A DNA stretch of 64,000 bases from contig NZ_CP043930.1 in assembly GCF_009720525.1 (NCBI RefSeq), positions 7,080,001 through 7,144,000 of the forward strand, given 5' to 3'. A program made the translations under genes and the position numbers. The notes under the pieces were generated by a model. That model saw nothing but the letters and a program-made list of their open reading frames with translations. It did no database searches and was not told the origin of the DNA. The stretch comes from Gimesia benthica. Lineage in GTDB: Bacteria; Planctomycetota; Planctomycetia; Planctomycetales; Planctomycetaceae. Below, piece after piece: positions 28,162 to 38,981 of this stretch. Numbering within the stretch: the stretch's first letter is position 1; the number at the start of each line of letters is the position of its first letter.

Positions 28162-28857
28162 CTGCGGTAAAAAAAGGTTAAAGCAACTGGCATCGACCAA
28201 TATGAGAAACTGTTTTCGTCTGCGGCACAAGAGAACTTGATTCATTACGCGATCATGACAGGCTCTCAACTCTGAACCAGTTGGGCCGTTATAAATCTAA
28301 GGTAATCGTGATTAAAATACAGTCTGAACTTCGAATGATCTATTGGCACTTGACCAGCATTTAAAACTACGAGATAGGCACGGTTTCAAAATGTGAAGAT
28401 TCCCAGAAATAGTGGGCGATTTAAAAAGAGTGTCAACTATTCTGAGGAAGAATAACAAGAGAAAACAGTATTCGAAATATAAACCCAAATGTCCACGGCG
28501 TTCAATTCCTGCTGAAGACGCATGTTCCTAATTCATTCGACCTGATCACCATTTCTAATACTACTAATAAATAGCGTGACCTTTACTCAAAATTGATTTC
28601 AAGAATCGAGAGAATATTTCATCTCCTTTCTAGTTCGACTGTCCTACATTCGTTAGCGTTTCGATTGAGAAAAAAAAGATTCTGTAGCCATAAGTCGAAC
28701 TGATACTGTTTCAAATATCAGCAGAAAATTTGCTCTGAACTAGAAAATCCATGATCTCTGATAGCTAAAATAAGGATAACGGGCCACCACTACAGGTGGC
28801 CCGTTATCCCATGTTATTTCTTTTGCTTTTCTCTAATATGTCTGCCCATTTTAAACT
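28162..28857. other. Intergenic region separating the metal block from the ubiquitin-like cluster
   Basis: About 700 AT-rich bases between a plus-strand and a minus-strand operon, i.e. convergent ends. No open frame with start signals is seen. The only structure noted is the hairpin terminator at 28774-28809. It may hold an island internal boundary, but no direct repeat was recognised. Confidence 0.5.
28774..28809 (-). terminator. Terminator at the end of the ubiquitin-like operon
   Basis: A perfect 15-bp stem, GGATAACGGGCCACC (28774-28788) with its complement at 28795-28809, and a 6-base loop. Read on the minus strand it is followed by TTATTTTAGC. It lies 49 bases beyond the stop of the E1-like gene, marking the end of the cluster. 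Confidence 0.85.
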
Positions 28858-29523
28858 TCATTTTAAGTATGTTTCACCAGCGAGAAGATTGAAGGTCGTA
28901 TCAAAATCAACAGGAATAGTTCGCAGCCAGCGAGTGAATTGATGAACCATAAGTCCTGCAGCAATGCTGGCTGCATAAATCGTACTGCGTGATGTACAGC
29001 TTCCGGTTTGTGCCTCGTTTTGTGGGAAAAGTGTTTTCGCATACTGTTTCATTCCATGATGCTGAGTTGCTGTCAGTATCCGAATTGTTTCTCCCAGCAT
29101 TCTTCCATCTGTCCAGAAATCGCATTTTCTGTTGACGGATCGCCAGATCACCGCACGGGCTGATATCGAGTCCACACAACAGAAGACAGCCTCACCCACA
29201 GGAACGGACACTCGATAACGATCCATAATCACCGTTACCTGAATTGAATCGTCAAGCTCCTGGATGGCTCTGGCTGTCGTGTCTACTTTAAGCTGCCCCA
29301 GATCCTGAGCTCGGTATCCCTGAGTCGTGATATTGGTCGACTCCACACTATCAAAGTCAATCAGCTGAATCCGTGGTGTCCCAATCGCCGCCAGTTGCAG
29401 CGCCACCTGACGACCAATGGCCCCCACTCCGATGACGGTTGCCGTCAACTGAGAAAGCCGTTCCGCCGGGATCAGGTCACTTTGTCTTTGGAAACGATCG
29501 ATAGTCACATTTAATGTATTCAA
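28858..29523 (-). CDS. E1/ThiF-like Ubl-activating adenylyltransferase
   Basis: A 221-residue member of the E1/MoeB/ThiF superfamily. The nucleotide-binding loop is [10 protein letters not shown] (residues 30-39), then [15 protein letters not shown] with Asp56/Asp58 and Asn64, and QLK (Lys79). CCVDS at about 115-119 is the second conserved block. Cys176 in [16 protein letters not shown] is the best candidate for a thioester Cys. The CxxC zinc pairs of MoeB/ThiF are absent. The start is a TTG (29523) with GGAG 6 bases upstream, overlapping the JAMM gene's stop (TTGA). It should adenylate the C-terminus of the Ubl at 31203-31427 and pass it to the E2-like protein. Confidence 0.88.
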
Positions 29524-30194
29524 ATCTGTTCTCCTTTCAATTCGTAATCAGCAAAGAGCCAGTCTTCATCCCAGTCAAAATCTGCGGTCTGATCAAAAGC
29601 AGACTGGAACAGGCGACTGTTCTGTTGCGGATGCACATGACTTAAATACTCATCCTCCCAACGTTCTGGATCACTACCGGCAAATGTTTGAGAGTAATCC
29701 CGTTTTACTGGGATTTCGTATTCTGCCGTCGGACCCACATTAAATTTTAACCGAGCATATGTTCGCCCTGTCCGCGCCAGAATGAACATCACGGCCCAAT
29801 CGGATCGACCAAACACACGGTTAAAAGTATTTTCATCGGTCTGGCTGGGCAAGGGACAATCTCCCGGATGCGTATGAATCCAGATCCGACCAAACTGTTC
29901 TGGACGGAGGCCCGCGTCCACCTGGTCGTCAAAGAAATTCGCGACCGCCTCATCGTCGAAGGCCACGTGAGCCACCGAGCAGGTCTGTTCCACAAGCTGC
30001 AGGTCCTGCACCAGCAGCAGATCCTCCTCTGATGTAATCCCAAAGCCACCAACTTCGGTGTCTCCGTAATCACGCAGGTACAACAGTTTCGCCCAGGCAG
30101 TCGGACTGAACCGCAGTTGCGGTAACCGGGTTTGCTGATGAGGCCTGGGTTTCCGGTAATTCTTCCTCTGTTTCTTCGAGTTCTTCTTCCGCAT
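29520..30194 (-). CDS. JAMM/JAB-family (MPN+) deubiquitinase-like metalloprotease
   Basis: A 224-residue zinc isopeptidase-like protein with a complete JAMM site: Glu47 in DTEVGGFG, then [14 protein letters not shown] (His107, His109, Ser117, Asp120), exactly HxHPx6SxxD. The N-terminus is strongly basic ([16 protein letters not shown]). It should process the Ubl precursor and/or remove it from targets. The start at 30194 is chosen because upstream codons in this frame are the out-of-frame reading of the Cys-rich region of the preceding gene. It overlaps that gene by about 125 bases; an ATG at 30215 would make the overlap longer. No ribosome site is obvious, so coupled translation is likely. 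Confidence 0.88.
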
Positions 30195-31125
30195 CACAAT
30201 CAGAGCACCTTTCATTTTCAAGTAAACAGCGTTGGCAGCAGTCAGCATGACACTGTATGCACTGTTGCAGACAGGACGAACAGCAGTGGCCGTGACAGCC
30301 ATCACAGTACGACAAACACTCATGGCAAAACGGACAATCGCAGTCCGAACAATCCTTAGTACACCCCGTGCAAAGTGTGATTTCACAGTTATCACAGCGG
30401 GTTTGCTGGTTGGCTGCGATCACATCGGCGCACTCGGTACATTCAACACTGTCCCAGTCACTGAGCGCCACATAGGGACTGTCGCGGTTATAAGTTTGTA
30501 ACAGGCTGGCCACCATCGTGAAAAAATCAAACAGCCGTCCCTGTTCCAGCGACCGGCGTATGACTTGCCGTCCATCCCCTTCACAGACGACATCAGATTG
30601 AATATGGGGATGTGTGACACAGTCATTGGTAAACGCCGGATGCGGGTCCGTGGCGAACACGCGATAAGGGGACCCGTTATCCATTTTCAGATTTGCATAA
30701 TTGAGACGAATCTCAAAAGGGCCCAGATAGACGCCTTCCAGTTTAATCGGTTCTGTACTGACAGAGATGGTCTGGGCACGGAGATCCAGCTGCAGCTCAC
30801 CGAATTCTTCTTCTAAAGACCGCAGTTCTGCATAGAGTTCCCTGACGGAAGAAATCTGCTGCGGAGATGTATCAGACGACAATTCACCATGTAAAGTTGT
30901 CAGTTCCTGGATCAACTGGGTTACACCAGTTTTCAGTTGTCGTTCCAGTTTTAGTGCAGCCGAATCCCAGCCTCTGCGTTGTGCTTGTTGGCGTTTCCGT
31001 AGTAACCGGTCACAGTACCACCATGTCTGGAATGGCATTTCATATAACGACGAGGGTTCTTCAGACACCAGACAGTGATATATTCGACTGGCAGTCCGCC
31101 AGAGTCGTTTTCGTGGATGCTTCAT
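30070..31125 (-). CDS. E2-like (UBC-fold) protein fused to a RING-like Cys-rich domain
   Basis: A 351-residue protein. Residues about 55-115 are helical and charged. Residues about 120-225 resemble a bacterial E2/UBC-fold domain, with [12 protein letters not shown], then [15 protein letters not shown], comparable to the HPN-x-G-x-I-C-L block of E2 enzymes; Cys181 is the candidate active-site Cys. [18 protein letters not shown] matches the E2 helix after it. Residues 229-310 contain about 27 Cys and several His in CxxC pairs (CTEC, CDNC, CTGC, CPFCHEC, CDGC), like one or two RING/treble-clef zinc domains. The tail is acidic. GAGGAG precedes the ATG at 31125. E2 plus E3-like activity in one chain is the inferred role. 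Confidence 0.75.
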
Positions 31126-31157
31126 TGTCTCCTCTTTCAAAAAATGGATTCCAGGGC

Positions 31158-31187
31158 GGACTGCCGGGGACGAGACCCCGACAGTCC
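31158..31187 (-). promoter_or_regulatory. Hairpin between the Ubl and E2-RING genes
   Basis: GGACTGCCGGGG at 31158-31169 pairs with 31176-31187 (12 bp including one G-U on the minus strand), with a 6-base loop. It lies in the 77-base gap between the Ubl stop and the E2-RING start; an ATTTTTTG tract follows about 10 bases later. It could attenuate transcription or protect the upstream mRNA, so that more Ubl than ligase is made. Confidence 0.55.
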
Positions 31188-31202
31188 GTGGAAATACAAA
31201 AA

Positions 31203-31427
31203 CTAGGACCGCGCCCCCTCAATCTTCGTCGGAGTGATCGAAATTCGGTCCCCGTCCTGTAACTGCTGGTCCGGGGGGCACGGCTGGCGATTCACGCGAA
31301 TCAGGTAATCGCGGGCTTCCGCATCTCCCATCTTCTGCTCAAAAAGTTGTGCTACCGTGGTTCCTGCGGGGACATCGATATAATCAGCGAACCCACCGCC
31401 ATCGTTGTTGATCAATAAAAGTTTCAT
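31203..31427 (-). CDS. Ubiquitin-like beta-grasp protein (ThiS/MoaD-type)
   Basis: A 74-residue protein, close in size to ubiquitin. It reads as a beta-grasp: MKLLLINN (strand 1), [18 protein letters not shown] (strand 2 and helix), [28 protein letters not shown], the last block matching the VNG...L.DGD.I.I..P pattern of ThiS/MoaD-family proteins. The C-terminus ends KIEGARS, with a single Gly (71) followed by three residues rather than a free Gly-Gly. AAGGAC precedes the ATG at 31427. It is upstream of the E2-RING, JAMM and E1 genes and is their likely substrate. Confidence 0.85.
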
Positions 31428-31479
31428 AAAAGTCCTTCCAGTTGTTGTTTGAAAATGTTTAAAAACACACAATGTTTGT

Positions 31480-31671
31480 TTATGTGAGCAGCCGTCGTTT
31501 GCGACGCCGTTTCCTGCGGCGTGTATTGCTTTTCACACCCCGTCGTCCCTTGATGCGTCCGGCGTGCAGCGTTTGCAGCAGGACTGACTGCGATTTTGAT
31601 CGTACACTGAGGATCTTTGGGACAGTTCGACAGCATTCGCTCGTTTGAAGATCAGCCCACCACTGGTTCAT
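31480..31671 (-). CDS. Small basic protein in the ubiquitin-like cluster
   Basis: A 63-residue frame starting [14 protein letters not shown] and ending in a run of Arg/Lys ([14 protein letters not shown]). AGGGG lies about 6 bases before the ATG, and it overlaps the previous gene's end by 20 bases, as coupled genes do. The basic tail suggests nucleic-acid or acidic-protein binding. A competing frame at 31424-31636 has no ribosome site. No family is recognised. Confidence 0.5.
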
Positions 31672-31867
31672 GGCGTGCCCCTTGTCGCTCGGAATTTAGT
31701 CGATTGGCTTCCAGTTCATCCCAGTCAATGATGTAAGGGCCCGACTCTTCTGCCTCGGGATCAATGACTTCCTCGGGCTCCGCTAATAAGAAGCCCAGAC
31801 GTTTTACGGTCGACATGCTTTCGCCGGTTGCCAGGGCCACGGCCCGATTTAAATCTGCCTGTCTCAT
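31652..31867 (-). CDS. Conserved small protein, first gene of the Ubl transcript
   Basis: A 71-residue protein. The N-terminal half looks like a small helix-turn-helix-type unit (MRQADLNRAVALATGESMSTVKRLGFLL), followed by an acidic linker and PYIIDWDELEANR. GGAG lies 7 bases before the ATG. I believe this N-terminal pattern recurs in short hypothetical proteins of planctomycetes and other bacteria, but no function is known to me. It begins just after the terminator at 31901-31941, so its promoter should be in or near the A/T-rich stretch around 31870-31900. Confidence 0.7.
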   Translation of the reverse strand: MRQADLNRAVALATGESMSTVKRLGFLLAEPEEVIDPEAEESGPYIIDWDELEANRLNSERQGARHEPVVG

Positions 31868-31900
31868 CAGTTGTCTCCTTCAAAACGAAAATGTTTAAAC

Positions 31901-31941
31901 AAAAAAAACCGGTCCTGCGGGCAACAAACCTGCGGAACCGG
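31901..31941 (-). terminator. Intrinsic terminator inside the cluster
   Basis: On the minus strand a roughly 10-bp GC-rich stem (CCGGTTCCGC pairing with GCAGGACCGG, one mismatch and one wobble) is followed directly by eight T. It lies between the genes ending at 31975 and starting at 31867, so the cluster is probably two transcripts or has an attenuated junction. Confidence 0.75.
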
Positions 31942-31974
31942 GGCAAACCAGTGATAAAATTAAGTTGTCAGTTC

Positions 31975-32226
31975 TCAAGGACCGGTATCTGGCGACAACC
32001 AATGCTGTTCCAGCCAGTCCGTTTCGGATTCCAGGGCAGCACTCCGCTGCGTAAACGGGCCCAGCTGGGGCCCATTCACGGGGGACAGATCGACCAGCCA
32101 TTGACCAGCTGCATTCGGTTCGACGTAAGAGCCACGTGAAATGGTCAGTCGACCGAGAGTTGCCAGGTTAAAGGCTTCTGAGTAAACGCAGTGAACCGTC
32201 CCCAGTGGTGAGATCAAAAGTTTCAT
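31975..32226 (-). CDS. Conserved small protein with GPxLGPF motif
   Basis: An 83-residue protein containing LGRLTISRGSYVEPNAAGQW, LSPVNGPQLGPF and a terminal LESETDWLEQHWL. I recognise this pattern as a recurring short hypothetical protein in bacteria, without known function. Its first residues (MKLLISPLG) superficially resemble the Ubl's start but the rest does not. GAGG precedes the ATG. It is the last gene of the upstream transcript, 10 bases after the 313-residue protein. Confidence 0.7.
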   Translation of the reverse strand: MKLLISPLGTVHCVYSEAFNLATLGRLTISRGSYVEPNAAGQWLVDLSPVNGPQLGPFTQRSAALESETDWLEQHWLSPDTGP

Positions 32227-32236
32227 GTGGATTACC

Positions 32237-33178
32237 TCACTTGGGAGTTCGAATAATCTGACGCCGTGGTCGATCGATTAACAGACCATCCAGGGCTGCC
32301 TGGACGCCAGACAATTCTGATGCGACCTGCTGACGGAGTTCACCCCGTTTTCGCAATTCCTGGGGCTGAATGCCCTGCACGATTCCCTGGCACTGGGCTA
32401 CCAGCACATCCAGCTGCTCGTTAGAACGGACATTCAGGGATCGGAAGCGTTCAAAAAACTCATGCAGGTTCCCGATGGCGGAATCACGAAATACTTTGGG
32501 CCGGCCATCGGCCTGGCCACTCAATCGATCCGTCAGATGCGACACAAGTTGTGACAGTTCGCCCAGAAAGGCGTCTTCCGCCAGCCTGACTGCTTCTTCG
32601 AAGCGTAACTGCACGCGCTGGCACTCCTGCTCATACAGTTCCGGATTGAGTTGCCTTAAATAATCCGGTGGTTCAACGCTGGGAAAGTCCCAGGACACTT
32701 CGAACAGACCTATCAGGGTCAAGGGATAATCGTCGTCATTGAAGAGACTCCCCAGGCGTTCCCGGGCCGCTGACTTCAGGGACAGGTATTGTTCATCCAG
32801 CTGTGAGACAGCCTCGTTGAGCTCTTGCGTGAACTGGTGCATCTGGTCCTGAAATGCAGTCAAAGCATCCTGCCGCAGTAACCGTATTCCGGATTCCGGA
32901 AAGGGCAGGCTGATGGAAGTCCAGTACGAGCGCACCCGCTGACGGACCGCATTCACGGCCCGGAAACGGGGGTGTCCGGTATCCAGTAGTTTCTTGCCCG
33001 CACTCAGGAAGGTCCCTTCTGCCCCAAACGATTCAGCGGCCTGAGTCTTCTGGTCGCGTGTCAGTGACTTGCGCGTACCAAACCATTCAAAACTGATGCG
33101 CGTAGCACACATCGTTGATCGCAGCCGATCGATGGGATCGGTGCGGGTATTTACTTCTTCGATAGCAGTTATGGTCAT
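32237..33178 (-). CDS. Conserved hypothetical protein, mainly alpha-helical
   Basis: A 313-residue soluble protein with no signal peptide or membrane segment. It is rich in charged helices, with recognisable blocks ESFGAEGTFLSAGKKLLDT, SISLPFPESGIRLLRQD, SWDFPSVEPPDYLRQLNP and GNLHEFFERFRSLNVRSN. I believe similar proteins occur in other bacterial accessory clusters, but no function is known to me. AAGGAG precedes the ATG. It sits 25 bases after the AAA+ gene, same strand, and may be the ATPase's partner or substrate adaptor. Confidence 0.75.
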   Translation of the reverse strand: MTITAIEEVNTRTDPIDRLRSTMCATRISFEWFGTRKSLTRDQKTQAAESFGAEGTFLSAGKKLLDTGHPRFRAVNAVRQRVRSYWTSISLPFPESGIRLLRQDALTAFQDQMHQFTQELNEAVSQLDEQYLSLKSAARERLGSLFNDDDYPLTLIGLFEVSWDFPSVEPPDYLRQLNPELYEQECQRVQLRFEEAVRLAEDAFLGELSQLVSHLTDRLSGQADGRPKVFRDSAIGNLHEFFERFRSLNVRSNEQLDVLVAQCQGIVQGIQPQELRKRGELRQQVASELSGVQAALDGLLIDRPRRQIIRTPK

Positions 33179-33203
33179 ATTAGCTCCTTAAATAGAGTGT
33201 GGT

Positions 33204-34700
33204 TTAGTTTCTGTGGGGATCACGAGAGAGATTTCGGCGTGAACGCGAACCAGAACGTTCGTCATTGCTAAATACGCCTGGTTGTTCTGCAGACAGACAG
33301 CGTCTGCTGGCCCAACGCCTGAGACGGGCCACCGATTCGGCGGCGGTGACAGCTACGGGAACCACGTTTTCAGCGGCCTTGATTAAAGGGACTTCGAGCA
33401 GCGCCGCCAGACGACAGCAGGCCCGGATTTCCGAACCGGTCCAATGCCGGTCGTCCGGCAAACGTTGATCGGACGTAAGACCAAACAGTTCACGGTACAG
33501 CCTCCAGATGGCCTGCTTCTGGTCATCTCCCGGTAAATCGAGAAAGAACAGTGCATCAAAGCGTTCGGCCCGCACGAACTCCGGTGGCAGTTTGGAAATG
33601 TCGTTGGCGGTACAAACTACAAACACGTCCGAAGTATGGTCGTTGAGCCAGCCCAGCAGCGTACCCAGCATGCGTGTCGAAACGCCGCTGTCTGACTGTC
33701 CAGAAGAGGCAGAGCCACTCAGCCCTTTCTCGACCTCATCAATGAACAGGACGGCCGGCTGCATCGCATCCACGATCCGAAGTGCTCTACGAGTTCGCTC
33801 CTCGGTCTGACCTAAAAGCGAAGCCATTAGAGCCCCCACGTCGAGTGTCAGTGTGGGACGCCCCGTCTCTTTTCCCAGTGCTTTGGCAAATGCGCTTTTA
33901 CCGGTTCCCGGAACTCCCAGTAACAGCACGCCTCTTGGACGAATGACCGGTGCATCCTGGGAACGGGGGCGGAGTGCACGCAAGCAAAAGGCTTTGAGAG
34001 ACTCCAGACCGCCCAGCCCAGCAAACGATTCCGATCCCTGGTGCAACGATAACAGACCGCTTTTCAGTAGCGTCTGGGATTTCAGCTCCAGTACGACCGA
34101 GGCTTCGATGCGTCCATGCCGCACCAGGGAGAAACTGAAGGCCCCTTCCGCTTCATAACGGGTCAGACCCGAGGCAGCGTCCAGGACACATTGCAGTTCA
34201 GGTCCCTCCGGCAATTCTCCTGTTTCCGTGGCGATACTGCGGGCAATTTCCAGCAGCTGATCCCGACCAGGAAGTTCATGTTCCAGGCAGACAAACAGTT
34301 TTTCCAGTTCTGTAGGGATCTGGACCAGGCTGGAAAGGATGACAATAAATGTCCGTGCCTGTTTACCCAGATTGATCTGTTGTGTCAGCGCCTGAATGAT
34401 CTCCGGCGAATTGATGAAGCAATGGAAGTTTTTAAGGACCAGCAGCGTGGGATGATCCGGATCGGCCTGACTGCTCAGACAGTGAATGGCAGCCAGGGGA
34501 TCGAGGAGCGACGTGTCGCGGCCTTCCGCGAGTTCCGTTCCCTGCAGGCCCCGGTCAATGTCCCATGAGAATAGCCGCCAGTCTTCGCTGTGACAGAGCC
34601 GAGACATTTCCAGCAATGCCTCATCATGTTCGTGGCTCTGAATCCAGATCCCGGTAAAGCAGGCGCGTACGTTCTCCGCAAGTCTTTCGGATAATAACAT
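33204..34700 (-). CDS. Ycf46-like AAA+ ATPase
   Basis: A 498-residue ATPase. The N-terminal 200 residues (ARACFTGIWIQSHEHDEA-like start, then LFSWDIDRG) resemble the degenerate N-domain of cyanobacterial/plastid Ycf46 proteins. The AAA+ core has Walker A GVPGTGKSAFAKAL (about residue 260), Walker B VLFIDEVEKG (about 315), sensor-1 FVVCTANDISKLPPE and an Arg-rich second region with ERFDALFFLDLPG. AAGGAA precedes the ATG. In this cluster it could unfold or remodel modified proteins; that is inference. Homology to AAA+ is certain; the Ycf46 assignment rests on overall layout and on the adjacent DUF1257 and DUF2997 genes. Confidence 0.9.
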   Translation of the reverse strand: MLLSERLAENVRACFTGIWIQSHEHDEALLEMSRLCHSEDWRLFSWDIDRGLQGTELAEGRDTSLLDPLAAIHCLSSQADPDHPTLLVLKNFHCFINSPEIIQALTQQINLGKQARTFIVILSSLVQIPTELEKLFVCLEHELPGRDQLLEIARSIATETGELPEGPELQCVLDAASGLTRYEAEGAFSFSLVRHGRIEASVVLELKSQTLLKSGLLSLHQGSESFAGLGGLESLKAFCLRALRPRSQDAPVIRPRGVLLLGVPGTGKSAFAKALGKETGRPTLTLDVGALMASLLGQTEERTRRALRIVDAMQPAVLFIDEVEKGLSGSASSGQSDSGVSTRMLGTLLGWLNDHTSDVFVVCTANDISKLPPEFVRAERFDALFFLDLPGDDQKQAIWRLYRELFGLTSDQRLPDDRHWTGSEIRACCRLAALLEVPLIKAAENVVPVAVTAAESVARLRRWASRRCLSAEQPGVFSNDERSGSRSRRNLSRDPHRN

Positions 34701-34746
34701 AAGAGTTTCCTTGATGGTTTGAAGTAAAAAGAAGGTGTGAAGTGTA

Positions 34747-35430
34747 TTAAGCGGTTCCCGCCAGCTGGCCGATCGTTTCCAGCCAGGAAATGATTTCCCC
34801 GTCAGGATCGCGTTCCTGCAGTAGGGAAATTGTCATCTGTTCGACCGCGCTGGTATTGAGCCAGTGCTTGGCCCGGTTTCTGAGTCGGACCCGGATTCGA
34901 CGAGTCAGTTGTTTCCAGCTATAGTCATCATGCCGACTGTCGAATACCCGCTGCGCCACTTCCGACGCTACACAATCATGGTCACCGAATTCAACAGTGA
35001 AATCGGCAACAGCCTGAATGGCTTGCGGATGCAGGTAGTTCTCCAAGCTCCGTTTCCGTGTCAGCACAGCACGACAAGGGATTCGTCGATTAATCTGAGC
35101 AACAAGCTCTTCCCGCTGTTCCCTCTCAGGGGATGCCTCTCCGTCTAAGAGATAAAATTCGGGAATTTGGAGCGGAGCCAGCCGACTAAGCCAAGCCCGG
35201 GGGTGGCCGCCAATGGGCAGGAAAATGAGTTCCTTGTCGCGTTCCATCGCGGCCAGGTCAGGCAGTGTGGGATGTGCCGTATGCAGGAGCGTCGAGATGC
35301 GGGTCAGAAATTCAATATCGTGTGCCCCTTCAACGACGACTAGAATACGTACCGGGTGGGGATCTTCGGGAATCGGGTCCGGTAAGACCTGCGTGTATTG
35401 ATTTGCGAAAACTAATTCTCCTGTGTTAAT
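34747..35430 (-). CDS. TOPRIM-like protein, start codon unclear
   Basis: About 200-228 residues. The core VRILVVVEGAHDIEFLTRIS supplies the acidic residue of a TOPRIM-type fold, followed by FLPIGGHPRAWLSRL, FYLLDGEASPE and RKRSLENYLHPQAIQA, the layout of OLD-family/DUF4435-like TOPRIM proteins. TOPRIM domains act in nucleases, primases and topoisomerases. No in-frame ATG, GTG or TTG lies between the DUF2997 stop and this core. The given 5' limit uses an ATT at 35430, inside the overlap with DUF2997; a frameshift from that gene is another possibility. The frame is open much further up but there only shadows DUF1257/DUF2997. Confidence 0.65.
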   Translation of the reverse strand: MNTGELVFANQYTQVLPDPIPEDPHPVRILVVVEGAHDIEFLTRISTLLHTAHPTLPDLAAMERDKELIFLPIGGHPRAWLSRLAPLQIPEFYLLDGEASPEREQREELVAQINRRIPCRAVLTRKRSLENYLHPQAIQAVADFTVEFGDHDCVASEVAQRVFDSRHDDYSWKQLTRRIRVRLRNRAKHWLNTSAVEQMTISLLQERDPDGEIISWLETIGQLAGTA

Positions 35431-35606
35431 TGGTTGGATTGATGTTGAACGGCCTGGTGGTATTCGGAGGTCAGCAGTTCTGAGGAGACCTTTCCCAGAG
35501 CCGCTTCCAGAAACCGGCTGGCGTCTTTGCACCGGGAGCCGGTAAAGCCGCGGGTTTCGATGCGGGACTGACCGTCCGTTGAAAAAATAATGTTGATTGT
35601 TTTCAA
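35412..35606 (-). CDS. DUF2997 family protein
   Basis: A 64-residue protein starting MKTINIIFSTDGQSRIETRGFTGSRCKDASRFLEAALG, the typical DUF2997 pattern, in which a short beta hairpin is followed by a Gly-x-x-Cys and a helix. The conserved Cys (about residue 26) is present. It overlaps the DUF1257 stop by four bases (ATGA), so the two are coupled. In cyanobacteria DUF2997 and DUF1257 genes are also neighbours; function is unknown. Confidence 0.8.
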   Translation of the reverse strand: MKTINIIFSTDGQSRIETRGFTGSRCKDASRFLEAALGKVSSELLTSEYHQAVQHQSNQLTQEN

Positions 35607-35971
35607 TGGTCTGCTCCGATCTGAATGGTGAGTTTAATGGAACCGTCGCTGAGCTGGTTTTCGTGGACGGAATGACCCTTCCGGCGCGCTTCCAGACGGC
35701 ATTTTTCCACGCCGTAAAATTGCAGCAGTCTGTTGAGTTGAGCCGGCTCTCCCCAGCGACCTTCAAAGTTGTCAAATCGAACCTGGCCCTGTTCGACATC
35801 GAACACAACTGGATACCGCCAGTCGGGGAGACGGACCGCGTATCCGGTGGCTTCTCCGCTAAACAGGGGAACGGTTTCGTGAACGGGTTCTCCCAGTTCG
35901 AGTCGGCGGCAGGCCAGGCCCAATGCCTCAGAGTCGCGGACCTCCGTTTGGATGGTGACAATATGTGACAT
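35603..35971 (-). CDS. DUF1257 (Ycf35-like) protein
   Basis: A 122-residue protein with the DUF1257/Ycf35 layout: MSHIVTIQTEVRDSEALGLACRRLE, GYAVRLPDWRYPVVFDVEQGQ, FDNFEGRWGEPAQLNRLLQFYGVEK, and a C-terminal strand GSIKLTIQIG. Ycf35 is encoded in red-algal plastids and cyanobacteria, where its role is not known. Here it lies upstream of DUF2997, TOPRIM and the Ycf46-like ATPase on the same strand, two bases after the coiled-coil lipoprotein gene. Confidence 0.85.
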   Translation of the reverse strand: MSHIVTIQTEVRDSEALGLACRRLELGEPVHETVPLFSGEATGYAVRLPDWRYPVVFDVEQGQVRFDNFEGRWGEPAQLNRLLQFYGVEKCRLEARRKGHSVHENQLSDGSIKLTIQIGADH

Positions 35972-35972
35972 T

Positions 35973-36542
35973 TCAGGTTTCCCTTTCTGTAGATGAGTTA
36001 TCAGGAGATTGAAGTAAATCCGTTAACCGGAGTTTGGCTGGATCTGTTTTCGCAGGTGGCATCAGCCGTGGTTCAGATGAGACCAAATCGTCCAATAGTA
36101 ATTCTGTGATCTCATTCTTGTCTGCGGGTTCAACTTTCTGCTGCAGTAACAGCCAGCAAATCAACAGGGGCAGCAGACTGACCACGACAAACGCCACCCT
36201 GGTGATCGCAGCCGCAATGATCGGATCTCGGTTTCGGCGGTCGGCGATTTCGCGGCGTTCTGCCTCCAGCTGATCCCGCTGGTGACCGATCTCGTTTCGC
36301 TCGGTTTGCATCTCGCGCTGCAGAGTGACCATTTCCTGTCTGGCGTTGGCGTCTGCTTCCACCAGCTCGCGTGACCCCGAGGCGACTTCCTGCTGCAGTT
36401 CCGACATCCGGCGGTTTTGATCCGCCTGTCGTTCCAGTTGCTGGGTGGCCAGTTCGGCCACACGGCTGTTTTCGTCAGGGCTACAGCTGACTCCGATCAG
36501 TAGGATCAGTGTCAGCGTGATTAGCAGAGTCTGTTTTTCCAT
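35973..36542 (-). CDS. Membrane-anchored coiled-coil lipoprotein
   Basis: A 189-residue protein. The N-terminus is a lipoprotein-type signal (ITLTLILLIGVSC). Residues about 30-105 are an Arg/Glu/Gln-rich coiled coil, followed by a hydrophobic segment (IITRVAFVVVSLLPLLICWLL-like, about 110-130), and an acidic cytosolic or periplasmic tail. GGAG lies before the ATG. It probably places part of the cluster at the membrane; no family is recognised. Confidence 0.7.
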   Translation of the reverse strand: MEKQTLLITLTLILLIGVSCSPDENSRVAELATQQLERQADQNRRMSELQQEVASGSRELVEADANARQEMVTLQREMQTERNEIGHQRDQLEAERREIADRRNRDPIIAAAITRVAFVVVSLLPLLICWLLLQQKVEPADKNEITELLLDDLVSSEPRLMPPAKTDPAKLRLTDLLQSPDNSSTERET

Positions 36543-36672
36543 GTGCCCTCCAGCGTTGAATCAGGTGTCTGAGAATTCCCTGTAGCGCCAGCCGCAACCG
36601 CCGTTCCTTGATCAAAGCGACGACGGACAGCAACAGAGCGACAGAGACGAACGTTAAAACCATGTATTCCAA
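36481..36672 (-). CDS. Short single-pass membrane protein, probable first gene of the cluster
   Basis: About 63 residues: a hydrophobic N-terminal segment (LTFVSVALLLSVVALI) then a basic, amphipathic stretch (KERRLRLALQGILRHLIQRW) and a polar tail. AAGGAG lies 6 bases before a TTG at 36672, which is therefore preferred to the ATG at 36663. It overlaps the next gene by 62 bases in another frame, which lowers confidence. The terminator at 36716-36752 is just upstream, so the promoter must be very close. Confidence 0.5.
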   Translation of the reverse strand: MEYMVLTFVSVALLLSVVALIKERRLRLALQGILRHLIQRWRAHGKTDSANHADTDPTDRSQL

Positions 36673-36715
36673 GCAAGGCTCCTTTCTTTCTAATAAGGGG
36701 AACTGTGTGAAAAGC

Positions 36716-36752
36716 AAAACGCCCCGCATTCCAAAGTAATGCGAGGCGTTTT
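36716..36752. terminator. Bidirectional hairpin terminator at the upstream edge of the cluster
   Basis: AAAACGCCCCGCATT (36716-36730) pairs with 36738-36752 with one mismatch and a 7-base loop; A/T tracts flank both sides. On the minus strand it would stop transcription from the lipoprotein gene at 37018-38313 before the ubiquitin-like cluster. The 265 bases on to 37017 show no gene. Confidence 0.75.
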
Positions 36753-37017
36753 AACTGATTATGTTTTTGAATTACGGGTGACGGTAAGTGACAATAGCTA
36801 AGCTGCGCACCTATTAATCATGACACGTTTCGAGCCAAAATTTAGATACAGTGTGTGAAGCCACTATGCAGAAGTAACTTTCTCAAAAGATTTCAAGTTC
36901 TGTAGCTGGAACTTAACCCACCTAAACCTGAAATGGATCACGTTTTCGTGGAACTTTATGTTCAAGAGACCATATTAAAGGTTGTCTGAGCGATTGAATG
37001 AAATTTTGAAGGGGAAT

Positions 37018-38313: not shown

Positions 38314-38438
38314 TGATTTTCTCCTCTTTTAATGGCGAATGTTTTTGAATACCTGCACTCTGATTGTCCAAGTTTACACTCAATAATGATACTTATAATC
38401 CGTGGTGTTATCGTCATTGTCAAGTGTTAAATGCTCGT

Positions 38439-38660
38439 ATGACTAAACGAGCAGACATATTGATGAGATTTGGAAAGCGAGTCCGCAAACTGCGCAAAGA
38501 GCAAGGCTACTCTCAAGAGAATTTTGCTTATGCCTGTGAGCTGGACCGGACTTACGTCGGCGGGATCGAACGGGGGGAACGAAATCTTTCATTACGGAAT
38601 ATCGAACGGATCGCCGATACACTCGAAATCAGCCTGGCAGAACTGATGGATGGGGTTTGA
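38439..38660 (+). CDS. XRE-family helix-turn-helix regulator
   Basis: A 73-residue DNA-binding protein made almost wholly of an HTH_3 domain: [48 protein letters not shown]. The start at 38439 is the closest ATG that leaves the whole domain; no strong ribosome site is seen. It is the only plus-strand gene between 28.2 and 44.0 kb and diverges from the lipoprotein gene, so it may regulate that gene or the element. Similar short XRE proteins control transfer in many mobile elements. Confidence 0.85.
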
Positions 38661-38666
38661 GGGAGT

Positions 38667-38981
38667 TTAGACCTCTGGTTCAGCAACCAGGACGACTCCC
38701 AGTTGGTCAGAGTCGTCGTTTTTTTCCAGTATTGCATCTGCCGGGTTTTCAAACAGACGGGGATTCTTTACCGTTGTCGCATCATGCTGGCATACAGCAT
38801 ACCGTAGTCGCGCTGTCAGAAGCTGAGTCTGCAGCCGTTGGATATCTTCCTGCTCCCATTTCTGATTTACTGCGGGATCACCGGCATAAATTGTGAGCAG
38901 ATTTGAATCTTCGAGATCCATTTCTTCACACCAGAACTGCAGGGCAGCTCTGATCAACATGATTTCTTGTCTCGTTAGCAT
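38667..38981 (-). CDS. Conserved-looking hypothetical protein of the mobile element
   Basis: A 104-residue soluble protein, MLTRQEIMLIRAALQFWCEEM at the start, with no recognised domain. AGGAG lies 5 bases upstream, and its ATG overlaps the stop of the preceding small frame (ATGCTAA). Together with that frame and the 63-residue gene it forms a run of short ORFs downstream of the serine recombinase, all on the minus strand. Confidence 0.65.
   Translation of the reverse strand: MLTRQEIMLIRAALQFWCEEMDLEDSNLLTIYAGDPAVNQKWEQEDIQRLQTQLLTARLRYAVCQHDATTVKNPRLFENPADAILEKNDDSDQLGVVLVAEPEV

What the first reader, a model, noticed from the sequence alone, without database searches (positions are those of the whole stretch)
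28774..36752. Complete bacterial ubiquitin-like conjugation cluster with AAA+, TOPRIM and Ycf35/DUF2997 genes
In one 7.9-kb minus-strand block bounded by terminators the sequence shows a Ubl, an E1-like enzyme, an E2-like domain fused to a RING-like domain and a JAMM isopeptidase with all catalytic residues. A Ycf46-like AAA+ ATPase, DUF1257, DUF2997, a TOPRIM-like protein and membrane-anchored proteins precede them. Bacterial Ubl/E1/E2/JAB operons are known (including the Bil antiphage system), but this combination with an ATPase, TOPRIM and Ycf35-like proteins is not one I can name. A defence or protein-quality role carried by a mobile element is inference.
Basis: partly seen in the sequence, partly recalled or inferred. 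Interest (0 to 1): 0.95.

Follow-up and report, generated by a model that had tools for sequence, protein, structure and literature searches.

The report
Swappable ubiquitin-like cassette on AAA core
Some planctomycete bacteria carry, often in several copies, a ubiquitin-like protein-tagging kit attached to a conserved ATP-driven machine; in sister loci the same machine is paired with a DNA sliding-clamp-like protein instead, and relatives of the kit are found in contigs classed as large viruses of bacteria.

Summary
The observation largely holds. The minus-strand block encodes Ubl, E1, a JAMM isopeptidase and an E2-like protein fused to a cysteine-rich region, behind AAA+, DUF1257, DUF2997 and an unnamed helical protein (p313). 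"RING" and "TOPRIM" remain unproven. The block recurs at six places in this genome, one copy interrupted. It consists of two modules. A core (DUF1257-DUF2997-AAA-p313-p83-p71) is followed by Ubl-E2-JAB-E1 in 30 of 82 distinct loci, by a beta-clamp-like protein in 28, by both in one, by neither in 23. On a p313 tree Ubl and clamp exchange at least 12 times. The cassette also occurs without the core and, in the same order, in six IMG/VR viral contigs, two of which carry AAA and p313 downstream. Best reading: a phage- or element-derived AAA+ remodelling machine, probably acting at DNA, aimed either by Ubl tagging or by a dedicated clamp. Conjugation, coupling and target are inferred; defence is possible but untested. 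Bacterial Ubl/E1/E2/JAB operons are known; I found no account of the clamp exchange in the library searched.

The parts
28773..28810 (-). intrinsic terminator downstream of the block
   Evidence: 16-pair stem with T tail
28858..29523 (-). E1-like adenylating enzyme (221 aa), invariant Cys in GxC[TS]xxxTxY
   Evidence: Pfam ThiF 6.7e-23; C172 invariant in 19 of 19 rows of A6
29520..30194 (-). JAMM/JAB isopeptidase (frame open to 30395; start near 30194 is my guess; overlaps the E2 gene)
   Evidence: Prok-JAB sub-threshold 0.0012; HTHPx6SxxD
30070..31140 (-). E2-like domain (HPH...C186) with C-terminal CxxC-rich region
   Evidence: alignment A3; AF2 model; Foldseek
31203..31427 (-). ubiquitin-like protein, conserved KIEGA tail; likely start 31427 (frame open from 31472)
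   Evidence: Pfam ThiS 1.3e-5; alignment A7
31652..31867 (-). p71, small protein at the junction of core and cassette
   Evidence: found in 29 of 30 Ubl and 28 of 28 clamp loci
31975..32226 (-). p83, small core protein
   Evidence: distant relative in phage Tunturi_3
32237..33178 (-). p313, helical core protein, distantly related to phage and plasmid proteins some of which are annotated DUF3150
33204..34700 (-). AAA+ ATPase with a CDC48/PAN-like AAA domain
   Evidence: Pfam AAA 4.6e-26; NCBIfam CDC48 3.7e-20, below its cut-off
34747..35411 (-). TOPRIM-like accessory protein (start uncertain; frame open to 35961)
   Evidence: EGxxD and DxE motifs; no profile match; profile hit in 12 of 30 Ubl and 3 of 28 clamp loci
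35412..35606 (-). DUF2997 protein
   Evidence: Pfam 1.1e-13
35603..35971 (-). DUF1257 (Ycf35-like) protein
35973..36542 (-). p189, likely lipoprotein/membrane protein
   Evidence: matches at all six places, cut by the edge of the fetched stretch in L010; lipobox-like LIGVSC by eye
36481..36663 (-). p82, short membrane protein (start 36663 preferred by eye; 36729 lies in the hairpin)
   Evidence: matches at five of six places, L010's stretch does not reach it
36719..36749 (-). leader hairpin followed by a T run
   Evidence: sequence; inverted 37-bp matches between the window copy and copies L008 and L009 near this site
36810..36848 (-). 36-39 bp element shared upstream of several copies (promoter or operator candidate, untested)

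Best explanation
The locus is a modular, probably mobile system. A conserved core (AAA+ ATPase, DUF1257, DUF2997, p313, p83, p71) is an ATP-driven protein-remodelling machine of phage or mobile-element origin, paired with one of two exchangeable targeting modules. Here the module is a ubiquitin-like cascade: E1 activates the Ubl tail and passes it to C186 of the E2; the fused cysteine-rich region acts like an E3; the Ubl is attached to target proteins; the JAMM enzyme matures the Ubl or removes it. The AAA+ ring then extracts or unfolds the marked target. In sister loci a beta-clamp-like protein stands in for the cascade and would tether the same machine to DNA. The targets are therefore most likely proteins bound at replicating or recombining DNA. 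Shown: genes, motifs, modular exchange, phage and plasmid relatives. Inferred: conjugation, extraction, the DNA-bound target and the benefit (maintenance of the element or interference with rival elements).
For: E2, E1 and JAMM motifs are kept. The Ubl tail KIEGA is conserved, with extra residues behind it in some members, as in a trimmed precursor. Of 82 distinct core loci with at least 5.5 kb downstream, 30 carry the Ubl cassette, 28 the clamp, 1 both, 23 neither; the cassette starts 1.6-2.1 kb after the start of p313 in 25 of 30 Ubl and 24 of 28 clamp loci when rounded to 0.1 kb. At least 12 exchanges on the p313 tree. The clamp profile matches DnaN in the PDB at 3.2e-8. Clamp loci L060, L066 and L080 have a PD-(D/E)XK nuclease family behind the clamp (L066 protein scanned, 3.9e-31). 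The distant locus L088 joins the core to a beta-clamp-like protein (PF02768 8.1e-6, just under cut-off), a Mu Gam-like protein (sub-threshold) and an AAA_24 ATPase. Phage Tunturi_3 has AAA, DUF2997, p83-like and p313 genes in order on one strand. Two viral contigs carry Ubl-E2-JAB-E1 and, 3.6-4.6 kb further on, AAA and p313; the record of one also has phage DNA polymerase, primase, DnaB and UvsX genes. In L165 the cassette lies upstream of the core.
Against: No experiment shows conjugation or any contact between AAA and Ubl. Seven of 27 strong E2 places have no core nearby. 23 of 82 core loci have neither cassette. AAA was found in 29 of 30 Ubl but only 22 of 28 clamp loci; four of the six misses lie at contig ends, L133 and L153 lack it despite about 10 kb upstream. 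Viral loci L199 and L203 show no AAA or p313 in the 5.3 and 6.7 kb held behind E1. p313 relatives also sit in AAA-DUF3150-vWA sets, and for the MoxR-vWA pair a virion-assembly chaperone role was proposed (PMC7824862, passage seen). No Foldseek match at E<=0.001 for the E2 or p313 model.
Confidence: 0.45

Rival explanations
1. Anti-phage defence: as in Bil or type II CBASS, the cascade tags phage proteins or a partner enzyme during infection and the AAA core disables tagged complexes.
For: Multi-copy, patchy distribution; the window's E2 is 48-50% identical to four of the five other copies (87% to the fifth) while AAA is 83-84% and p313 86-87%, as expected if a recognition part diversifies; partial PADLOC matches to E1-E2 and JAB models and of AAA to IetA; Ubl systems are a known defence theme (PMC13373217, passages seen).
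Against: PADLOC matches are partial only; relatives of the cassette and of the core are found in phages or viral contigs. Neighbouring defence genes were not searched for systematically.
Confidence: 0.22
2. Phage-type chaperone: AAA-p313 is a MoxR-DUF3150-like chaperone for assembly of large complexes, and the Ubl cassette regulates it.
For: p313 relatives sit with ATPase and vWA genes in phage MinM2 and in a Caballeronia plasmid; MoxR-vWA proposed for virion assembly (PMC7824862, passage seen).
Against: No vWA match among the window proteins scanned; the part that most often replaces the cassette is a DNA clamp relative.
Confidence: 0.13
3. Housekeeping protein quality control: a bacterial counterpart of Ub-CDC48 that clears damaged proteins.
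For: AAA domain nearest CDC48 and PAN models, all below cut-off; tag, untag and unfoldase genes together.
Against: E2 in only 16 of 392 genomes of the phylum, two of these weak; several diverging copies in one genome; no protease was recognised in the block apart from the JAMM enzyme.
Confidence: 0.1
4. Hitchhiking: core and cassette are independent genes that share mobile hot spots and do not cooperate.
For: The cassette occurs alone and the core without it; recombinase profile hits 2.5-9 kb upstream of p313 in 3 of 30 Ubl, 0 of 28 clamp and 8 of 23 'neither' loci and upstream of 4 of 7 core-less cassettes.
Against: Close conserved spacing, the pairing in the other order in L165 and again in two distant viral contigs; p71 accompanies both forms and 6 of 7 core-less cassettes.
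Confidence: 0.1

Closest known systems
Bacterial Ubl/E1/E2/JAB operons of Iyer and colleagues 2006, types 6a-6e (PMC1779556, passages seen)
   Same: Ubl-related, E1-like, E2-like and JAB genes together, some on mobile elements
   Different: 6a-6c have E2 fused to E1; the 6d E2 lacks the classical His; the words AAA, DUF1257 and Ycf46 do not occur in the main text
Prokaryotic RING/E2/E1/JAB systems of Burroughs, Iyer and Aravind 2011 (recalled; not held; seen only as a reference in PMC11354881)
   Same: RING-type domains with E2, E1, JAB and Ubl; may already include planctomycete examples
   Different: could not be checked; I recall no clamp exchange or phage-borne copies from it
Bil and Bub systems (PMC13373217, passages; composition of Bil recalled)
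   Same: Ubl, E1, E2 and JAB-type protease
   Different: here E2 carries a long CxxC region and the operon has an AAA core; E1 matches Citrobacter BubCD at 1.7e-11, weaker than PaaA (1.7e-15) and MoeB (4.3e-13)
PRTRC plasmid system (composition recalled; TIGR03736 match)
   Same: ThiF-family protein on mobile elements
   Different: E1 scores 32.9 bits against a cut-off of 144.75; no PRTRC model listed for Ubl, JAB or E2
AAA-DUF3150-vWA modules of phage MinM2 and a Caballeronia plasmid
   Same: ATPase followed by a p313-like protein
   Different: annotated as MoxR family in the phage; a vWA gene follows there and none was recognised here
AAA-DUF1257-DUF2997-DUF3150 module on a plasmid of Candidatus Manganitrophus
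   Same: four core genes in the same order, with a gene annotated as JAB domain two genes upstream of AAA
   Different: no Ubl, E1 or E2 annotated in the 14.8 kb shown
Eukaryotic PCNA ubiquitination and CDC48 (established knowledge)
   Same: clamp, Ub cascade and a CDC48-type AAA+ in one pathway
   Different: here clamp and cascade are mostly alternatives in a locus and are not known to act on each other

Membership tests
Ubiquitin E2 (UBC) | UBC fold | tested here: met
   AF2 model pLDDT 83; 38 of the first 40 Foldseek rows are E2 entries by title, but best E is 0.069: supported, not proven
Ubiquitin E2 (UBC) | His motif and catalytic Cys | tested here: met
   HPH-x(4-8)-C-x-G in 24 of 24 complete frames from the loci and in all 6 viral loci
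RING finger E3 | eight zinc ligands with RING spacing | tested here: inconclusive
   CxxC pairs; second-to-third pair spacing 4 rather than the canonical 2-3 (motif as given in PMC11354881); weak mixed profile hits
JAMM isopeptidase | E, HxHP, S, D motif | tested here: met
   window [14 protein letters not shown] with upstream E; strict whole-motif pattern in 19 of 24 complete relatives, the 5 misses not examined
E1-like ThiF | GxGxxG, catalytic Asp, Cys | tested here: met
   Pfam ThiF over cut-off; G28, G30, G33, D114, C172 invariant in 19 rows; simple pattern in 23 of 24 complete frames
TOPRIM | Glu and DxD motifs in the TOPRIM fold | tested here: inconclusive
   EGxxD and DxE-type motifs; no Pfam or PDB match
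Beta sliding clamp (the alternative partner) | homology to DnaN | tested here: met
   DnaN in PDB 3.2e-8; phrog_947 3.1e-5; no DnaN match in Pfam for the two members scanned; ring formation not tested
Bil | four-gene operon with stand-alone E2 (recalled) | tested here: not met
   E2 fused to a Cys-rich region and further core genes in the block
Bub | Bub-type E1 and E2 | tested here: inconclusive
   E1 matches BubCD at 1.7e-11, after PaaA, MoeB, ThiF, MccB and UBA5; no Bub entry among 35 matches of the E2 profile
PRTRC | matches to PRTRC models over cut-off | tested here: not met
   ThiF model 32.9 bits against 144.75; no other PRTRC model listed at E<=0.01
DUF3150 | Pfam DUF3150 model | tested here: inconclusive
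   not among the 25 families shown of 54 that 27 p313 members hit at E<=1; plasmid proteins annotated DUF3150 match p313 at up to 1e-36
Anti-phage defence system | protects against phage | not testable with these tools
   needs an experiment

The most novel reading that the evidence does not exclude
One AAA+ machine with interchangeable targeting modules: bacteria and large phages aim the same remodelling core at DNA-bound proteins either through a dedicated sliding-clamp-like adaptor or through a ubiquitin-like tag. This would be a prokaryotic counterpart of the clamp-ubiquitin-CDC48 pathway of eukaryotic replication, and the phage copies would be complete viral ubiquitin-like conjugation systems.
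Probability: 0.3. Interest if true: 0.92.

Novelty: new variant of a known kind. Interest (0 to 1): 0.78.

Why it matters
E1, E2 with a zinc region, isopeptidase and an AAA+ unfoldase are encoded side by side, so the tag-and-extract logic of the ubiquitin system could be tested in bacteria. The repeated exchange of the Ubl cassette for a clamp-like gene points to a substrate class, DNA-bound proteins, which is the usual unknown in bacterial Ubl systems. Relatives in large phage contigs raise the question whether viruses of bacteria run their own ubiquitin-like conjugation.

Tried and rejected
Searches of viral contigs with p313 found nothing; the E2 alignment did. tblastn of DUF1257 against phages: no match; a profile comparison of DUF1257 with the corresponding Tunturi_3 gene was weak (probability 12). 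tblastn of the AAA against phages found 85 records at 1e-15, only one covering 80% of it, so AAA relatives alone say little. tblastn of the E2 protein against plasmids: no match. Fold search for p313: no match at E<=0.001, best tRNA-His guanylyltransferase at 0.018. TOPRIM not confirmed. Tail-sheath family: no match in five viral records; Terminase_6N in two of six. Three large proteins of L201's record gave no PHROG match, so its viral nature rests on IMG/VR. Serine recombinase as mobiliser of every copy: not supported; a search with the window's recombinase found itself and one weak partial match in the genome, although a profile of diverse recombinases also hits beside L008. Transposase-like frames near loci without a cassette (L136, L175) were seen by eye and not followed. 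Literature searches, of which I saw listings, showed no title or abstract start describing the core-clamp-Ubl exchange; the library lacks most subscription papers.


Full report
Observation. The window lies in an 8.03-Mb single-contig genome. The closest named relative of p313 in the genome-contig scan, 96% identical, is a MAG called Gimesia, so the host is probably a Gimesia-like planctomycete (inference). Pfam names ThiF (6.7e-23), ThiS (1.3e-5), AAA (4.6e-26) and DUF2997 (1.1e-13), with sub-threshold matches for Prok-JAB and DUF1257; the E2 protein, p71, p83 and the TOPRIM-like protein have no match and p313 only a chance-level one.

E2 and partners. Twenty-three E2 proteins align with invariant HPH and C186 and many CxxC pairs. 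The AlphaFold2 model (pLDDT 83, pTM 0.58) has N-terminal helices, then a helix, a beta meander and further helices. In Foldseek 38 of the first 40 rows are ubiquitin E2 entries by title (UBE2A, UbcH5, Cdc34 and others), but the E-values are 0.07 and worse. The cysteine-rich region is RING-like at best. The E1 keeps its nucleotide motifs and an invariant Cys. The Ubl ends in a conserved KIEGA (KIDGA in L165, RIEGA in L114), sometimes with a further tail, which would suit trimming by the JAMM enzyme (inference).

Copies. The E1 has six copies in the genome. tblastn finds E1, JAB, E2, Ubl, p71, p83, p313, AAA, the TOPRIM-like protein, DUF2997, DUF1257 and p189 at all six places; p82 at five, the stretch fetched for L010 not reaching it. 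In L010 DUF1257 is interrupted by a large serine recombinase gene and AAA by a group II intron-type reverse transcriptase gene. The window's E2 is 48-50% identical to four of the other five copies and 87% to L011; AAA is 83-84% and 92%, p313 86-87% and 97%. A seventh p313 lies at L051, where the 19 kb read hold a clamp gene and no E1, E2, JAB or Ubl match; that clamp is the only strong clamp-family match in the genome, the other being weak (1.5e-6).

Distribution. p313 occurs in 28 of 392 genomes drawn from the phylum (27 of 217 good ones), often in several copies, with at most five candidates scored per genome; one of the 28 is weak (1.9e-5). The E2 profile hits 16 of 392 at 1e-8, two of them only in the zinc region. 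The clamp hits 11 of 294 at 1e-10, one weakly. A genome-contig scan kept the best 80 of 89 relatives; it used patterns from close members, so it favours near relatives. Their titles are planctomycete except L107 (Emcibacter) and a few that say only 'bacterium'.

Modularity. I scanned 126 loci with profiles of each gene. Ten were dropped: one without p313, two with p313 cut, seven whose p313 stretch was identical to another's, among them L053 (the window's copy in another genome) and L135 (a second place in the same chromosome as L134). Of 116 distinct loci, 82 have at least 5.5 kb downstream of p313: 30 hold at least three of the four Ubl-cassette genes, 28 the clamp, 1 both (L114), 23 neither. 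Of the 34 shorter ones, including the window's own stretch L007 (5.3 kb, Ubl), 5 hold the Ubl cassette, 6 the clamp, 23 neither. Among the 82, AAA is found in 29 of 30 Ubl and 22 of 28 clamp loci, DUF1257 in 24 and 22, p83 in all of both; four of the six clamp loci without AAA end near p313, but L133 and L153 lack it with about 10 kb upstream. On a quick maximum-likelihood tree of p313 (81 rows, the window's included) Ubl and clamp exchange at least 12 times; against all other labels, starred branches alone force at least 9 changes for Ubl and 7 for clamp. Long branches make parts of this tree unsure. In L165 the cassette lies upstream of the core. Of 27 strong E2 places, seven have no p313 nearby. 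These were fetched: each has Ubl-E2-JAB-E1, six have p71, four have a recombinase profile hit upstream, one (L191) a p83 hit, none AAA or p313.

The alternative partner. The clamp profile matches DnaN in the PDB at 3.2e-8 over two of its repeated domains and, for the L051 protein, a PHROG processivity factor (3.1e-5); Pfam gave no DnaN match for two members. Clamp loci L060, L066 and L080 continue with a PD-(D/E)XK nuclease family, and the distant locus L088 joins the core to a beta-clamp-like protein, a Mu Gam-like protein (both under Pfam's cut-off) and an AAA_24 ATPase. The core therefore travels with DNA-metabolism genes.

Phages and plasmids. Phage Tunturi_3 has AAA (5e-75), DUF2997 (2e-6), a p83-like protein (8e-7 over two weak pieces) and p313 (5e-46) on one strand. 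A plasmid of Candidatus Manganitrophus carries AAA-DUF1257-DUF2997-DUF3150, and 40 plasmid records have a p313 relative. The E2 alignment found six relatives in IMG/VR contigs; all six have Ubl, E2, JAB and E1 in the same order on one strand. Two (L200, L201) have AAA (E about 1e-91) and p313 (9e-14, 1e-17) downstream; L199 and L203 do not within the 5.3 and 6.7 kb held, and L198 and L202 are too short there to tell. L200's record also codes for DNA polymerase, primase, DnaB, UvsX, an exonuclease and ribonucleotide reductase. The records of L202 and L203 have a terminase (by PHROGs too for L202's). L201's record is unverified beyond IMG/VR, and L198's 17.9-kb record holds two recombinase frames, so it may be a planctomycete element.

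Mechanism. The parts imply Ubl activation, E2 transfer, possible help from the zinc region and JAMM reversal; this follows from the families and was not tested. The link to AAA rests on conserved order, the other arrangement in L165 and the two viral contigs. The DNA-bound target is an inference from the clamp in the same slot. Defence, an assembly chaperone, quality control and mere hitchhiking remain rivals.

Known work. Bacterial operons with Ubl, E1, E2 and JAB were described in 2006 (PMC1779556; passages) and RING-containing ones in 2011 (recalled; not held), so the cassette itself is probably not new. A jumbo-phage survey has no occurrence of 'JAB' or 'Ubl' in its main text and 'ubiquitin' only about eukaryotic viruses and in a reference title (PMC7824862). 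Listings of the literature searches showed no account of the core-clamp-Ubl exchange, but most subscription papers are missing there.

Noticed in passing
L087 (3594-5261) and L186 (phage Tunturi_3, 5240-6874): The AAA+ domain has its Walker B block before the Walker A block (internal segment swap): 2 of 103 AAA frames spanning at least 300 aa. tblastn of the phage protein at 1e-20 found no other phage record.
   Followed up: partly
window 1-49127 (and 40 kb further left, the limit of what was fetched): 99.3% identical to another genome of the genus (G238), while the aligned pieces beyond 49166 are 88-95% identical: a recently shared stretch of at least 89 kb with a sharp right edge. G238 has a 1.9-kb insert at window 28767, where a transposase-like 449-aa frame lies (by eye).
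   Followed up: partly
window 38364-38660 (+) and 38667-38981 (-): An HTH regulator and a 104-aa protein recur near other copies (clusters c3 and c2). Members of the 104-aa family lie between AAA and p313 in L054, L070 and L071, of the HTH family in L068, L071 and L072.
   Followed up: no
L010 (G000:C1:4901500-4917000): One of the six copies carries a serine recombinase insert in DUF1257 and a group II intron-type RT insert in AAA.
   Followed up: partly
L161 and L169: Core loci without either cassette lie beside what look like host dnaN, a DUF721-like gene and gyrB on the other strand (by eye; clamp profile hits there).
   Followed up: no
window 30070-30194: The conserved C-terminal tail of the E2 protein overlaps the likely start of the JAB gene in another frame, so its conservation may reflect both frames (by eye).
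   Followed up: no
L107: A contig binned as Emcibacter carries a p313 95% identical to the window's and the Ubl block: mis-binning or transfer.
   Followed up: no
L202 (4159-11179): The viral contig has two E2-like genes in a row, followed by a JAB domain near the N-terminus of a 1333-aa frame.
   Followed up: no
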